Shown here: one piece after another, positions 2,938-12,989 of the stretch
Layout: each line of letters starts with the position of its first letter
Numbering within the stretch: the first letter of the stretch is position 1
Source of the DNA: a virus
Virus record (IMG/VR): IMGVR_UViG_3300003177_000338
Location: 1 to 20,027 of that record
Direction: 5' to 3' (one strand)
Length of the DNA: 20,027 nt
Notes under the pieces: model-generated
The model's input: only the letters and a program-made list of their open reading frames with translations
Told to the model about the DNA's origin: nothing
Databases searched by the model: none
Program-made: the position numbers and the translations under genes

Positions 2938-3004
2938 TTTTATTAAGTGTATTTTATATATAATTATATATAAGAAATAAATAGAATTTAAACTTTACGA
3001 AAAC
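2938..3004 (+). promoter_or_regulatory. AT-rich leader of the polymerase gene, promoter-like
   Basis: A 67-base gap containing TATATAATTATATATAAG at about 2957-2974. It resembles the TATAATTATA leaders found before several small genes later in the window. No strong ribosome site stands before the GTG at 3005; a weak TAAGAAA lies at 2971-2977. Confidence 0.4.
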
Positions 3005-4900
3005 GTGTTTAAAGCAAGAAATACACTCTATGCTAGAACGTATGACACAGAAACAAAAGAGTCTTCTCTTAATGCTGTTAAATATATACCGAGTATATAT
3101 ATTGAAACACCTAACGAATCAACTATAAAATCTGTATTTGGTGATAATTTAAAGGAAATATCTTTTAAAACTAACAAAGAATATAAGGAAACCCATAGTC
3201 TTTATAGTTCTTCAAATGTTAAAATGTATGGTAATAAATCTCAAGAACAAGGTTTTATAAGAGATAATTGGCCTGTACCAACCGAATGTGATCATAAGTT
3301 CCATTATTGGGCTTGGGATATAGAAGTAGGTAATGGAGATAAATATATTACAGAAAATGATATATCTACAAATGTTATAGTTAACGGTAAAAATAAATCA
3401 TTATTATTATCACAGTTAAATATTCTAGAAGATAAAAATATAGAATATGAAACTACTGAAGACTTATCAAAATACATATTTAATAAAGATTCATGGAAAC
3501 CCCAAGGTGAATTCGGTAGTACTGCCGTAATAACATCTATACAGATATATGATTCAAAACACAAAGAATATTATATTTTAGGTCTAAATAAAGAATGGGA
3601 AAATAAAAATAATTTAGTTGACGAATATGGAAAAATTAACTATTTTAGAATGGCAGATGAAGAATCTTTATTAAAAGAATTTCTTAGGCTTTTAGCATAT
3701 AAAAATCCAACAATTTTATTTGGTTGGAACACATCTGGATATGATGTCCCATATATAACTACAAGAATAATAAGAATTTTAGATAAAGAAACTGAAATTT
3801 ATTCTTATGATTCTAAAGTACAAAGATGGAGATTTAATACAGAATTATTATCTGGTTCTTATGTATCCCAATTATCACCCGTTTCATTAATACAACATAG
3901 AGAAGTCGATACGAATTATGGCGTTAGAGATGAATTTTCTTGGAAAGGTATATTTCTAGAAGATTATTTAGATTTATATAAAAAATATACTTTTACAGTT
4001 CATACTTCTTATAGTTTAGATACGGTTGCGTCATACGAATTAGGCGATAATAAAGTATCTCATGATGATCATTTAGATTTTGGAGAATTCTATAAAAAAG
4101 ATTTTAATACGTTTATAGAATACGGTATAAAAGATGTAAATTTACTTGTTTCATTAGATAACAAATTATTGTTATTAGATTTAGCCAAAACAATAGGTTA
4201 TATTTGTGGAGTAACATTAGACGATATTAGAGGCACTGTAAAACAATGGAACTCATTAATGTTTAATACATACAAAGAACATAATATGATATTACCTTTG
4301 GAAACCCAGTTTAAAACAAATGATATTGAACTATTAATGAGAAGTAAAGATCTAAATATAAGTGAAGATTTAAAAGAAAAATTTAGTAGATTGTTATTAG
4401 ATGAAGATTTACATGGTCAGAAATTTTGTGGTGGTATTACAAGAGGGACAGGCAAATTTTGGCAAGAAGTATTTTCTCTTGATTACGGTTCTTTATATCC
4501 ATCTTGTATACAATGGGCTAATATAGGTATAGATACATTAATATTACCAAAAGATGTACCTGAAGAATTATTAGAGTTAAGAGCTAAATATGCAATATAT
4601 TATGAAAAAGATTGTGAATCAAAAGACCTCATAAAGTTTGATTATGAATTCATTGAAAAGTCCATATATAATAAAGATAATGCTGCAGAAATAGAAAGAG
4701 TTCTTAAAAAACATAATGTTACTATGACACCAAACGGTATGTTTTTCAGAAGTGATAGAAGAAGTGTTTTATCATTATCTATGGAAAATATTATAACAAA
4801 ACGTAAAGTTCATAAGAAAAACATGAAAAATTATTTAAGAGAAATAGAAGAACTAAAAGCTAAAAAGGAAAAGTTAGAAAATAAACTATCACAACTATAA
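3005..4900 (+). CDS. 43A: DNA polymerase family B, N-terminal subunit (exonuclease and palm; T4 gp43 type, split gene A)
   Basis: The first 631 residues of a T4 gp43-like replicative polymerase. The 3'-5' exonuclease shows WAWDIEVG (Exo I, D105, E107), GWNTSGYDVPY (Exo II, D247) and YGIKD (Exo III, Y373, D377), so proofreading looks intact. Palm motif A is LDYGSLYPS (D493). A stretch of about 60 residues between Exo I and the next strand is an insertion relative to T4. The protein ends in a charged helix (about 605-631) that corresponds to the outgoing fingers helix; the rest of the polymerase is encoded by the next gene. The GTG start has no good ribosome site, and codons upstream in the same frame (2981-3004) encode EFKLYENV, which resembles the conserved N-terminal strand of T4-like polymerases. 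The true start may therefore be at 2981, where the codon is ATA. Confidence 0.92.
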   Translation: MFKARNTLYARTYDTETKESSLNAVKYIPSIYIETPNESTIKSVFGDNLKEISFKTNKEYKETHSLYSSSNVKMYGNKSQEQGFIRDNWPVPTECDHKFHYWAWDIEVGNGDKYITENDISTNVIVNGKNKSLLLSQLNILEDKNIEYETTEDLSKYIFNKDSWKPQGEFGSTAVITSIQIYDSKHKEYYILGLNKEWENKNNLVDEYGKINYFRMADEESLLKEFLRLLAYKNPTILFGWNTSGYDVPYITTRIIRILDKETEIYSYDSKVQRWRFNTELLSGSYVSQLSPVSLIQHREVDTNYGVRDEFSWKGIFLEDYLDLYKKYTFTVHTSYSLDTVASYELGDNKVSHDDHLDFGEFYKKDFNTFIEYGIKDVNLLVSLDNKLLLLDLAKTIGYICGVTLDDIRGTVKQWNSLMFNTYKEHNMILPLETQFKTNDIELLMRSKDLNISEDLKEKFSRLLLDEDLHGQKFCGGITRGTGKFWQEVFSLDYGSLYPSCIQWANIGIDTLILPKDVPEELLELRAKYAIYYEKDCESKDLIKFDYEFIEKSIYNKDNAAEIERVLKKHNVTMTPNGMFFRSDRRSVLSLSMENIITKRKVHKKNMKNYLREIEELKAKKEKLENKLSQL

Positions 4901-4941
4901 CTTTCTAAAAAGGATAAAATATACTATTAAAAAGGAATATC

Positions 4942-6933
4942 ATGACAGATGAAGAAATAAAAATACAGATAGAAGATATAGATAATAAAATAAGAGAATT
5001 AAATGCATTAGCAGATAGAGAGGAAGTATTTCAATTAGCGCTTAAAGTTTTGGTTTAACAAGAAGACCCTTTATATAGTAATATATAATAGATAACCCAT
5101 TGAATTGCTGGAACGTCTGGATAATACTTAAATACTACAATATAGGAGAAATCACTATATGAGAGTTTAAAAAATTTAAGGTAAAGAAAATCAGCAGCCA
5201 AGCTTCTAAGGTATATAATACTAAGAAGAAGGTTCAACGACTATTCCGTAAGGAAGTAGGAACTAAGTAGTTCCGAAGTGGTGGGCATCCTAATATTAGG
5301 TTAAGGATGAAGATATAGTCTAGTCTATATGGAGACATATAGAAGTTCATAATAGGACTGCTTAGTAGTAACGATACTAAGTGAATACATCGAACAGTGC
5401 ATATGGATCCTTATCCATGTTGGCGACTCTTTTTGCTGGTCATGTGGAATATTTTTCTGTTGCAGTAACTAGCTCTGCTAGAATATCTAATCTTATTGCA
5501 GGACAAGTTAATTCTGAAAAAATAAATGAGATATGCGGATTATCAAATATAGAGCAAAAATATGGTTATTACACTAAACTAGATCATATACCACAACAGG
5601 ATACGGACAGTGTCATAGGCGATAGTATTGTATATTCTATGAAAATACAAATGGAAATATAGAAAAAAGAGACTATAATAATTATATTAAGCATATTGAA
5701 GATGATGTTTATACATTATCTTTAAATAAAGACGAAAATATTTTAGAAAACAAGAGGGTCAAATATATAATGGCCCATAAAGTTAAAAAAAGAATGTACA
5801 AAATTAAACATGAGAATAATGAGGTAGTTGTAACAGAAGACCATAGTGTAATTATTAAAAGAGATAATAAATATATCGACGTAAAACCAAAAAACATCAT
5901 AAAAGGTGACAAAATTATAAAAAACAAAATCTTTAATATGACAGAAACAGAAGATTTTGTTGTCGAAGATATAGGCATTTTAGAAGAATGGGTATATGAT
6001 ATAGAAGTTGAAGATAATCATAACTTTTTTGCTAACGATATATGCGTACATAATAGTAATTATGTATCTATACAACCTGTTGTGGAAAAGAAATTTAGCA
6101 AAAATTATAGAGAACTAATAGAAGATCCTAATAATGATTTAACAAGAAGAAGAATAACCGAGTTTACTGAAAATTATATTAATAAAGTATCTTTGCCTAT
6201 AACGTATGATGCATTAGAAAATATGTATAGTAAAACATTGAATGCATATTTACCAGAAAAACTTATAGAAGATCCCGAAGTTATTTGCGATAATTTTATT
6301 AGTTTAGCCCCAAAAATGTATTTTTGTCGTAAAGCCTGGGAGGAGGGCCTATACCTTAATAAGCCTAAGCTAAAGGTAACAGGTCTTAGTATGGTTAGAA
6401 GTTCTACACCAAAGTTTTATAGAGGTGAACTAGCAAAAGCGATGGATATTTTAATAGATGCAGATTTACCAAAAGTTATAGAATTCTGTTCATGTGTAGA
6501 AAAAGCTACGAATGAACAGAAGCCTTCTGATATATGTATAAATCAGGGTGTGTCTAGTTTAGATTATACATGGGATGAAACAATAAAGAAGTTTAGAAGA
6601 TGGGTACCAGATAAGAATAAATTTTTATCTGCTCCTGTTAATTCTAGAGCTGCTTTGGTACATAATAAGTACATAAACGATAATAGTATAAAGATAAAAG
6701 ACATAGAACCAGGTGATAAAATATCTTTTATCTATATGAAAGAACCAAATATAACAGGTTCTAATGCTTTTGCTTTTCAGAATGAGAAAGTTTTTGGATA
6801 TGGGTTAGGAGATTTTATAGATAGAAAAACAATGTTCGAAAAAGGATTTATGAAACCTATAAAGTTAATAACAGACCCTCTTAAGTGGGATCTAACACCT
6901 CCAGAGCAACTAATAGATGAAGATGAATGGTAA
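4942..6933 (+). CDS. 43B: DNA polymerase family B, C-terminal subunit (fingers to thumb; split gene B, interrupted by intron and intein)
   Basis: This gene supplies the remainder of the polymerase. Its ATG has an AAAAAGGAA ribosome site at about 4930. Exon 1 (4942-5055, 38 codons) is the returning fingers helix and ends ALKVLV. Exon 2 starts at 5384 with NTSNSAYGSL. Joined, they form motif B (K-x3-N-x-S/N-S-x-YG). Exon 2 reads to the catalytic DTD at 5600-5608, where an intein begins, and the C-terminal extein runs from S6055-codon SNYVSI to 6933. It includes the conserved LKVTGL-SSTPK element and MFEKGFMKP near the end, as in T4 gp43. After splicing the subunit would be about 405 residues, and both subunits together about 1036 (T4: 898). 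As given, a one-base deletion at 5642-5645 breaks the frame inside the intein. One added A restores it. Confidence 0.85.
5056..5383 (+). ncRNA. Group I self-splicing intron (no endonuclease gene)
   Basis: A 328-nt intron inside polymerase motif B. The 5' exon ends GGUU (5052-5055), which pairs with GACC at 5065-5068 to form P1 with the required U-G pair at the splice site. P4 is UUGCUG (5105-5110) with CAGCAG (5192-5197). P7 is GACUAU (5239-5244) with AUAGUC (5315-5320). The flanking sequences match the P, Q, R and S core elements (for example AAUCAGCAGCCAAG and GUUCAACGACUAU). A hairpin with a GAGA tetraloop (5325-5342) fits P9, and a last stem (5361-5381) precedes the terminal G at 5383. 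Exact joining gives an uninterrupted motif B. The extra stems between P7 strands suggest subgroup IA, as in T4 introns. No open frame of note lies inside, so it is not self-mobile now. Confidence 0.9.
5609..6054 (+). mobile_element. Mini-intein in the polymerase active site (frameshifted as given)
   Basis: The intein starts with Ser1 in SVIGDSIVYS directly after the catalytic DTD, a block A like that of archaeal polymerase inteins. Block B is VVVTEDHSVII with the T-x2-H motif at about 5836-5850. Blocks F and G are VYDIEVEDNHNFFAND and ICVHN, followed by the +1 Ser of the extein. These are all residues needed for protein splicing. It is 446 nt as given; with one A added to the run at 5642-5645 it becomes 149 codons and the frame is restored through NTNGNIEKRDY. 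At that size there is no room for a LAGLIDADG or other homing endonuclease, so it is a minimal intein. Splicing would restore DTDSNYVSI, the polymerase motif C. Confidence 0.88.
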
Positions 6934-9437: not shown

Positions 9438-10646
9438 CTATCTTTCTTTTGATGGAATTATTAATTCCATTGTAGTACCTTTTTTAGATGTTTCTATCAA
9501 ATGTACATCTCCGTCTACATTATTTAATATATACTTATTAAGATACATACCATTACCTCTAACGCCATAATCATCATTTTTTGTACTATAATTAGCTTTA
9601 AAAATTTTATCTATAACATTAAAAGTCGTAAATGATATAAAAATTTTATCTGCATTCGCTTCGAGTGAATTTTTTATATGATTTATTATAATACTTAATA
9701 GCTCAGCATTTTTTAGTTTTAATAGACTGTAATTATTTAGTCTTTCATCTATTTTATACCAAAAGTCACCATTACTTATATTTATGATTTTAAATGCTCC
9801 CTCAAAAATATCGAAAATACTTTTGTTACCATTACTATATCTAAGATGCTTAAAACTTTTCATTTTATCCAATACGCCATATATTTGTTCGCCACTTAAT
9901 TTAATAAATTCAAAATCTTCCTCCAAATCAATTAATTTTTTATTTCTTTTTATTCTATCTTCCGGCACCATGTCTAGATCTTTAGTATATTTTAGTTCGT
10001 CGACTATTACTTCATTTAATATTCTATGGATTTTTTCTACTTTATTATCTATTACCTCTAATGGGGTATTTAATTCATGATGTATATTTTCTGCAATATT
10101 TATCATAGACTTATTTGCTAAAAGAGCTTCGTTACCAGCTAACATTATTATTGTTTCTTTTTGTTCTTCTTTTATACTAAAATATAAGGGTATTGTAAAT
10201 AAAAATAATAAGAATATAATAAAAGATATTATTAGTAGACCATAATGTTTTAAAAATGTTGTATTTAAGTAGTAATAAGACTGAGATTCTTTATTAAATA
10301 TTTTAATATTAAAGTCTTTATCAACATATATGTTTTTTGTAAAGTTGTAATTTTGTAAATATTCATGATTATCATCTATTATTAAATGCTGCTGAGAGTT
10401 TACTAAATAGAATTTATTTTCTTTTATAAAGTCGACTCTATGACATTTTGATAGTTTACATAGTTGTTCTCTATCTATTTCGCCATATTCTTTTATATTG
10501 TATACTAATTCATCGGATATATAATTTATATGATATGTAAATATTGTACCTATAGATAATGTAACAACGATGGTTATACCTATTAAGAACAATAGTAAGC
10601 GTTTTGCATTTTTTCTAAGTATATTATTAGTTATAATTTCATTCAT
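9438..10646 (-). CDS. Two-pass membrane histidine-kinase-like protein with degenerate ATP site
   Basis: A 402-residue protein with the layout of a sensor kinase: TM1 at about 17-38, an extracytoplasmic domain of about 95 residues, TM2 at about 134-156, then a phospho-acceptor helix NIAENIHHELNTPLEVI (His190 in H-E-x-x-T-P) and a HATPase domain. In the latter, an N-box IINHIKNSLEANADKI (320-335) and a G2-like GVRGNGMYLNKY (361-372) are clear, as is the terminal GTTMELIIP. The G1 box (D-x-G-x-G), which contacts the adenine base in active kinases, is not found between IFISFTTFN and IDKIF, where only a shortened segment remains. AAGGAAA precedes the ATG. The receiver protein gene lies just upstream. 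Kinases are very rare in phages; this may be a working kinase of an unusual kind, a phosphatase, or a decoy. Confidence 0.8.
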   Translation of the reverse strand: MNEIITNNILRKNAKRLLLFLIGITIVVTLSIGTIFTYHINYISDELVYNIKEYGEIDREQLCKLSKCHRVDFIKENKFYLVNSQQHLIIDDNHEYLQNYNFTKNIYVDKDFNIKIFNKESQSYYYLNTTFLKHYGLLIISFIIFLLFLFTIPLYFSIKEEQKETIIMLAGNEALLANKSMINIAENIHHELNTPLEVIDNKVEKIHRILNEVIVDELKYTKDLDMVPEDRIKRNKKLIDLEEDFEFIKLSGEQIYGVLDKMKSFKHLRYSNGNKSIFDIFEGAFKIINISNGDFWYKIDERLNNYSLLKLKNAELLSIIINHIKNSLEANADKIFISFTTFNVIDKIFKANYSTKNDDYGVRGNGMYLNKYILNNVDGDVHLIETSKKGTTMELIIPSKER

Positions 10647-11810: not shown

Positions 11811-12989
11811 ATGGATAATATTAATAAAGAAAAAATATGCTCTTTTTGTAAAGCAAAAGAAACAAAAAATAATAATATAGTAGAAGGAAAAGAACATACA
11901 ATATGTAAATCCTGTATAGAAACCGCTTTATGTTTAACAGAAATAGACGACTCTAAATTATCTATTAACGAAATAAGCGCGACAAAATATATAGTAAATA
12001 AACCCACTTATTATAAGGGTATATTAGATAACTTTATAATAGGACAAGATAAAGCTAAGAAGTTACTATCTGTATCTGTTCATAATCATATGCTAAGGAT
12101 AAATAATCCTGACGTTAAAGTTAATAAATCAAATATATTATTTATTGGGCCAACTGGTACAGGTAAAACATATTTAGCAGAAACAATATCCAAAAGTCTA
12201 GATATACCTTTAGCTATTGTTAATACATCTTCTTTAACTGCTTCTGGATATGTTGGTGAAGATACGTCATCTATATTAGAACGTTTATGGAAAAATGCTG
12301 GAGAGGATGTTGAAAAAGCAGAAAAAGGTATTATATTTTTAGACGAAATAGATAAAAATACATCTAGTTCAGGTGGTACTAACGATAAAGATGTTTCTGG
12401 TAAAGCTGTTCAACAAGAATTATTAAAAATGTTAGAAGGAGATATTGTAAAAATATATCCAGAAGGGTCTAAAAATAATAAAAAGAGTGGCTCTCCTATA
12501 GAAATAAATACAAAAGATATATTATTTATAGCTGGTGGGGCATTTGTAGGACTAAAAGATAAACCTGGTATAAGTATTAATGCCCTTGGTAAATCTGATA
12601 AAGAAACAGACGATATTAGTAATGTTCGTATGCAAGAATTATTAGATAATTATGGAATTATACCAGAATTTTACGGTAGATTTAATAATATTGTTGAATT
12701 AGAGCATCTAGATGTAGATGCTCTTGAGAAAATTATGATTGAACCAAAAGATAGTGTTGTTAAACAATATAAAAATTTATTTGATTTAAGCGGAACTAAA
12801 TTAGAACTAACTAAAAAGTTTATATCTAAAGTAGCTAATGACGCATTAGAAGTAAAAACAGGCGCAAGAGGTTTAAAAACAATCATGGAAGATATTTTAT
12901 CTCCTATAATGTTCGATATTGAAAAATACGAAAATAAAACAATAAAAATAGATTGTAAGGAAGATAATATTACTATTATAGAATGCTAA
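11811..12989 (+). CDS. clpX: ClpX-like AAA+ unfoldase, without the ClpP-docking IGF motif
   Basis: A 392-residue ClpX homologue (E. coli 424). The N-terminal zinc domain is complete (C10-x2-C13 and C32-x2-C35). The AAA+ module has Walker A GPTGTGKT (113-120), pore loop GYVG (146-149), Walker B IIFLDEID (D178, E179), an arginine finger in PEFYGR (R290) and sensor 2 GARGLK (R353). Two loops differ from cellular ClpX. The RKH loop is replaced by GSKNNKKSGSP (about 219-229), and the IGF loop that docks on ClpP is replaced by GISINALGK (253-261), which has no I-G-F. Substrate unfolding should work, but docking on host ClpP is doubtful. The ATG has no visible ribosome site. In a phage, it may remodel complexes, replace host ClpX adaptors or recruit substrates through the zinc domain. 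Confidence 0.9.
   Translation: MDNINKEKICSFCKAKETKNNNIVEGKEHTICKSCIETALCLTEIDDSKLSINEISATKYIVNKPTYYKGILDNFIIGQDKAKKLLSVSVHNHMLRINNPDVKVNKSNILFIGPTGTGKTYLAETISKSLDIPLAIVNTSSLTASGYVGEDTSSILERLWKNAGEDVEKAEKGIIFLDEIDKNTSSSGGTNDKDVSGKAVQQELLKMLEGDIVKIYPEGSKNNKKSGSPIEINTKDILFIAGGAFVGLKDKPGISINALGKSDKETDDISNVRMQELLDNYGIIPEFYGRFNNIVELEHLDVDALEKIMIEPKDSVVKQYKNLFDLSGTKLELTKKFISKVANDALEVKTGARGLKTIMEDILSPIMFDIEKYENKTIKIDCKEDNITIIEC

What the first reader, a model, noticed from the sequence alone, without database searches (positions are those of the whole stretch)
4890..6060. Three separate interruptions of one DNA polymerase within 1.2 kb
Between palm motif A and the C-terminal extein the polymerase is split into two genes (4900/4942), carries a group I intron in motif B (5056-5383) and an intein in motif C (5609-6054). 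All three hit the most conserved active-site region. Making one polymerase needs two polypeptides, RNA splicing and protein splicing. The combination in a single gene is exceptional and offers several possible control points for replication.
Basis: seen in the sequence. Interest (0 to 1): 0.85.

Follow-up and report, generated by a model that had tools for sequence, protein, structure and literature searches.

The report
Phage DNA polymerase interrupted three times

Summary
The window is a 20-kb fragment of an uncultured phage with a T4-like (gp43) family-B polymerase. (1) The gene is split at the fingers: gene A 3005-4900, gene B from ATG 4942. (2) Gene B carries a group I intron (Rfam RF00028, 85 bits). 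It spans 5056-5392, not 5056-5383; all uninterrupted relatives require the 5055/5393 junction. (3) A Ser1/Ser+1 intein sits in motif C (DTD|S), 5609-6054. However, compared with its closest relative (73% identical) the intein lacks 31 nt near its start. This shifts the frame, so the chain stops at 5662, 17 residues into the intein. It is the only one of 47 homologous N-intein halves that is broken. As sequenced, the protein-splicing step cannot happen; the deletion is either very recent or an assembly error. The combination is not unique. Aeromonas phages Aes508 and Aes516 are annotated with split gene, intron and split intein, and two further viral contigs (L040, L088) show all three. Verdict: a new member of a known kind, with a damaged intein.

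The parts
3005..4900 (+). gp43-like PolB gene A: exonuclease domain, palm motif A (SLYPS), first part of fingers; homology begins upstream at about 2981
   Evidence: PHROG 262 E 1.3e-97; Pfam DNA_pol_B and DNA_pol_B_exo1; tblastn to relatives from 2990/2993
4901..4941 (+). 41-nt intercistronic gap that splits the polymerase in the fingers region, with an AAGGA ribosome-binding site before ATG 4942
   Evidence: sequence; relatives L002, L003, L019-L021 run through without a break
4942..5055 (+). gene B, exon 1 (MTDEEIK...FQLALKVLV)
5056..5392 (+). group I intron, 337 nt, no ORF; P1 pairs exon GGUU (5052-5055) with GACC (5065-5068), U5055.G5065 wobble; omega-G at 5392
   Evidence: RF00028 85.2 bits; minimum-energy fold contains this P1; spliced frame open
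5393..5608 (+). gene B, exon 2: motif B NSAYG to motif C DTD
   Evidence: 62.5% identical to L021 over 72 codons
5609..5662 (+). start of the intein in frame A (SVIGDSIVYSMKIQMEI-stop), Ser1 class, cut short by a frameshift
5633..5640 (+). junction of the 31-nt deletion: L021 has 33 nt between GTATAT and TATGAAAATAC, the window has TC
5626..6054 (+). rest of the intein in frame B (FYENTNG...TEDHS...DNHNFFANDICVHN), N and C halves joined without an endonuclease gene
   Evidence: Pfam Intein_splicing E 2.1e-10; dN/dS 0.12 and 0.06 against L021
6055..6933 (+). C-extein (SNYVSI...DEDEW), palm end and thumb
   Evidence: 64-69% identical to L002, L003, L004; PHROG 262 E 1.2e-48

Best explanation
This is a T4-type phage polymerase gene (gp43 homologue) whose conserved active-site stretch has collected three insertions or breaks of kinds that recur at the same place in other phages. 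Inferred working: gene A and gene B products fold together non-covalently, as shown for phage 25; the group I intron removes itself from the gene B mRNA at 5055/5393; an intact version of the pol-c Ser1 intein would then splice the protein to give DTDS-NYVSI. In this contig the last step is broken by a 31-nt frameshifting deletion in the intein, which is either a very recent mutation in a defective genome or an assembly or sequencing error. Shown by sequence: the three interruptions, the splice junctions by homology, the deletion. Inferred: subunit assembly, ribozyme activity, and that an intact intein exists in the population.
For: Intron: RF00028 85.2 bits. A homologous intron in L004 sits 7 nt upstream, and its guide sequence matches its own exon: AGAU/GUCU there, GGUU/GACC here, with U.G at the cut in both. 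Five introns spliced in silico all restore motif B, each exon ending in U and each intron in G. Intein: a Ser1/Ser+1 pol-c intein 73% identical to the naturally split, endonuclease-bearing intein of L021, a relative by its polymerase. 31-nt deletion in the DNA alignment; 46 of 47 homologous N-inteins are open through motif N3 and only this one is not. The remainder of the intein shows strong constraint and no second lesion, so the break is recent or artefactual. Split: the same break region as gp43A/gp43B of Aes508, Aes516 and Aes123; phage 25 43A and 43B co-purify with polymerase activity (PMC2988022).
Against: No reads, RNA or protein are available. The homologous start of gene A also lacks an ATG (ATA 2981, weak Shine-Dalgarno), which could mean wider decay of this gene. 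The whole genome is not held, so a replacement polymerase cannot be excluded.
Confidence: 0.82

Rival explanations
1. The deletion is real and the polymerase gene is decaying; the phage is defective or uses another polymerase encoded outside this 20-kb fragment.
For: Three mechanical faults in one gene: no ATG at the homologous start, a split found in no clade relative, and the frameshifted intein.
Against: All catalytic motifs (DIE, SLYPS, KxxxNSxYG, DTDS) are intact, and exteins and intein show dN/dS of 0.06-0.35 with no stop elsewhere. Split and intron are compatible with function in phage 25 (PMC2988022, PMC2993671).
Confidence: 0.25
2. The intein is an atypically split intein: frame A supplies a 17-residue N-fragment (SVIGDSIVYSMKIQMEI) and a separately started C-fragment completes it in trans, as in PolB16 OarG.
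For: PolB16 OarG is a Ser1/Ser+1 PolB intein with a 15-residue N-fragment and extein GDTD (PMC10189870). The window N-fragment has 17 residues.
Against: Frame B has no ATG, GTG or TTG between 5626 and 5770; a start at 5770 would drop about 40 residues of the Hint fold, and the later ATG 5938 has no Shine-Dalgarno. FYENTNG... homology in frame B abuts the deletion.
Confidence: 0.06
3. Programmed -1 frameshifting between 5626 and 5662 joins the two intein frames.
For: The frame change is -1 and the two frames overlap by 37 nt.
Against: No X XXY YYZ heptamer in the overlap. The product would still lack about 10 residues that every homologue has.
Confidence: 0.03
4. The three interruptions were assembled by selection to control replication in stages.
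For: Co-occurrence in several lineages.
Against: The relatives show all subsets: none (L002, L003, L019, L020), intron only (L004), intein only (L021, L013), so the elements come and go independently. Homing into conserved sequence is sufficient.
Confidence: 0.04

Closest known systems
gp43A/gp43B1/gp43B2 of Aeromonas phages Aes508 and Aes516 (JN377894, JN377905)
   Same: Polymerase split at the fingers, group I intron in motif B, Ser1/Ser+1 intein at DTD|S; all three in one polymerase
   Different: Intron lies further downstream (NSLYGA-T|TA-G); the intein is split into N and C genes, with a VSR-like gene between them in Aes508. In the window the intein halves are joined but frameshifted.
Aes123 PolB1 (CL) intein
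   Same: Same insertion site and cysteine-free catalytic chemistry (Ser1, Ser+1); 39% identical over the N-half of the query
   Different: Aes123 is a working split intein (PMC11923092); the window copy is contiguous and carries a frameshift.
Split gp43 with group I intron of Aeromonas phage 25
   Same: 43A and 43B encoded separately; group I intron in 43B without its own endonuclease (PMC2993671, PMC2988022)
   Different: No intein mentioned there in the passages read.
PolB16 OarG atypically split intein
   Same: Ser1/Ser+1, PolB, GDTD extein, 15-residue N-fragment (PMC10189870)
   Different: It has a separate C-fragment of 168 residues; the window has no normal start for one that keeps the fold.
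Fractured genes with split inteins and VSR-like endonuclease (cited as Dassa et al. 2009, PMC2677866; not read here)
   Same: L021, closest intein relative, has the layout N-intein gene, endonuclease-like ORF, C-intein gene
   Different: The window has no endonuclease ORF in the intein.

Membership tests
T4-type family-B DNA polymerase (gp43) | exonuclease and palm motifs A, B, C and overall homology to gp43 | tested here: met
   PHROG 262 E 1.3e-97 and 1.2e-48; Pfam PF00136, PF03104; a clade relative (L019) matches RB69 gp43 structures
Group I intron | conserved catalytic core P3-P8 | tested here: met
   RF00028 85.2 bits over the full model, gathering score 50
Group I intron | P1 with U.G at the 5' splice site and omega-G at the 3' end | tested here: met
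   U5055.G5065 in the minimum-energy fold; G5392 last
Group I intron | self-splicing | not testable with these tools
   needs RNA
Class 1 intein (Ser1, pol-c site) | blocks A, B, F, G with Ser1, TxxH, HN and Ser+1 | tested here: met
   SVIGDS, VTEDHS, HNFFANDICVHN|S; Pfam PF14890 E 2.1e-10
Class 1 intein (Ser1, pol-c site) | one open reading frame through the intein, or two complete split halves | tested here: not met
   stop at 5660-5662 after a 31-nt deletion; no normal start for a separate C part that keeps the fold
Split gp43 (43A/43B) as in phage 25 and 44RR | stop and restart in the fingers, upstream of motif B, with its own ribosome-binding site | tested here: met
   TAA 4900, AAGGA, ATG 4942; same break region as Aes508 43A/43B
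Split gp43 (43A/43B) as in phage 25 and 44RR | the two chains assemble into an active polymerase | not testable with these tools
   shown for phage 25 only (PMC2988022)
Atypically split intein (PolB16 type) | N-fragment of about 15 residues plus a separately started C-fragment | tested here: not met
   no ATG/GTG/TTG in frame B before 5770

The most novel reading that the evidence does not exclude
The 31-nt deletion is real and fixed, and the phage still makes polymerase: either a short 17-residue N-intein splices in trans with a C-part started at a non-standard codon, or the polymerase works as three separate chains divided inside catalytic motif C.
Probability: 0.06. Interest if true: 0.75.

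Novelty: new member of a known kind. Interest (0 to 1): 0.36.

Why it matters
It shows that the fingers-to-motif-C stretch of phage PolB is a shared landing zone for gene splits, group I introns and inteins: the triple combination occurs in at least four lineages. Group I introns were seen at five positions within motif B, and two related introns have guide sequences matched to sites 7 nt apart. It is also a caution: a reader can recognise an intein by its motifs and overlook that the frame is broken. Candidate Ser1 inteins from these loci are of use for cysteine-free protein splicing.

Tried and rejected
Exact search for the deletion junction in IMG/VR: no other contig carries it, but the window's own record is left out of such searches. 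Bacterial and archaeal genomes (pol query) and plasmids (intein query): no relatives. Second polymerase: none in the 20-kb record, uninformative for the rest of the genome. Canonical -1 slippery heptamer: none. Inserts in motif B of L025 and L038: not recognised by Rfam at E 0.01, left open. One tblastn run failed through a wrong option and was repeated.

Full report
What is there. The window is a 20,027-base virus record from an uncultured phage whose polymerase is nearest, among named phages, to those of Campylobacter phages (28-32% identity) and clearly of the T4 gp43 family. Its close relatives are IMG/VR contigs L002, L003, L004/L022, L005, L019, L020 and L021 (about 50-69% identity).

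Gene split. Gene A (3005-4900) ends after KKEKLENKLSQL. Gene B starts at ATG 4942 behind AAGGA, and the frames on either side of the 41-nt gap do not join. The clade relatives that cover this region read through it without a break. The break lies in the fingers, between motif A and motif B, as in gp43A/gp43B of Aes508, Aes516 and Aes123. Phage 25 43A and 43B co-purify and are active, and phage 44RR is split by an untranslated intercistronic sequence (PMC2988022).

Intron. RF00028 matches 5040-5342 with 85.2 bits. The relatives read KKTLNNSAYG, KILLNSMYG and KILINSAYG across the site. The minimum-energy fold contains P1 with U5055.G5065. L004 carries a homologous intron 7 nt upstream whose guide sequence matches its own exon. 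All five motif-B introns tested (window, L004, L088, L040, Aes516) give an open spliced frame, with U before the intron and G at its end. They occupy five different positions within roughly 30 nt of motif B.

Intein. Ser1 is at 5609-5611 and the C-terminal HN|S at 6054/6055. Homologues with the same site (DTD|S) are common in phage PolB genes. The closest is L021: 73% identical, split at the usual place with an endonuclease-like ORF between the halves. In the window the halves are joined in one frame (frame B), but the beginning is in frame A. The DNA alignment shows 33 nt in L021 against 2 nt in the window between GTATAT and TATGAAAATAC, a deletion of 31 nt. The gene B chain therefore stops at 5662. 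Of 47 N-intein halves found by one pattern (some are near-duplicates, one may be a chance match), 46 are open through the TxxH motif and the window's is not. The rest of the intein is under strong constraint against L021 (dN/dS 0.12 for the N part and 0.06 for the C part). The break is thus recent, or an error in the sequence. A PolB16-like short N-fragment (PMC10189870) was considered. It fails because frame B has no normal start codon before 5770.

How unusual is the combination? GenBank records of Aes508 and Aes516 annotate split gene, group I intron and split intein in one polymerase; the introns are confirmed here by Rfam. In IMG/VR, L040 has gene A, an endonuclease-like ORF, gene B, intron and intein. 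L088 has a stop-split gene, intron and intein, cut by the contig end. L088 is 87% identical over the N-terminal region to L039, which lacks the intron and split, so intron and split can be gained quickly. Intron plus intein in one gene is also reported for the terminase gene of Campylobacter phage IBB_35 and the SPbeta ribonucleotide reductase (PMC3322345). The literature searches found no paper describing all three in one polymerase, but the library is incomplete.

Interpretation. Independent mobile elements repeatedly enter the best-conserved stretch of this essential gene; relatives with none, one, two or three of the interruptions exist. No evidence supports a control function. Confidence is high for the split and the intron. 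For the intein it is high for identity, and high that the written sequence cannot splice. It is open whether the deletion exists in the phage.

Noticed in passing
window 2978-3007: The homologous N-terminus of gene A (KLYENVF) lies upstream of GTG 3005. Where relatives have a strong ribosome-binding site and usually ATG, the window has ATA directly after a TAA stop, with only AAGAA upstream.
   Followed up: partly
L004 771-1376: The DnaB-type helicase gene of this relative carries the C-terminal part of an intein (..NLFYANDILTHN|SAMGNTDAG).
   Followed up: no
L005 5763-5821: This relative's polymerase changes frame inside the exonuclease domain, again a break or an error.
   Followed up: no
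L025 3264-3776 and L038 3534-3758: Inserts in motif B of intein-bearing polymerases that Rfam does not recognise as group I introns at E 0.01; they may be unusual introns.
   Followed up: partly
L088 versus L039: Polymerases 87% identical over the N-terminal region, one uninterrupted upstream of the intein and one with a stop split and an intron: a recent gain.
   Followed up: partly
window 11811-12989: A ClpX-like AAA+ protease subunit gene in a phage contig, beside a membrane protein with a weak histidine-kinase ATPase match at 9438-10646 on the minus strand.
   Followed up: no
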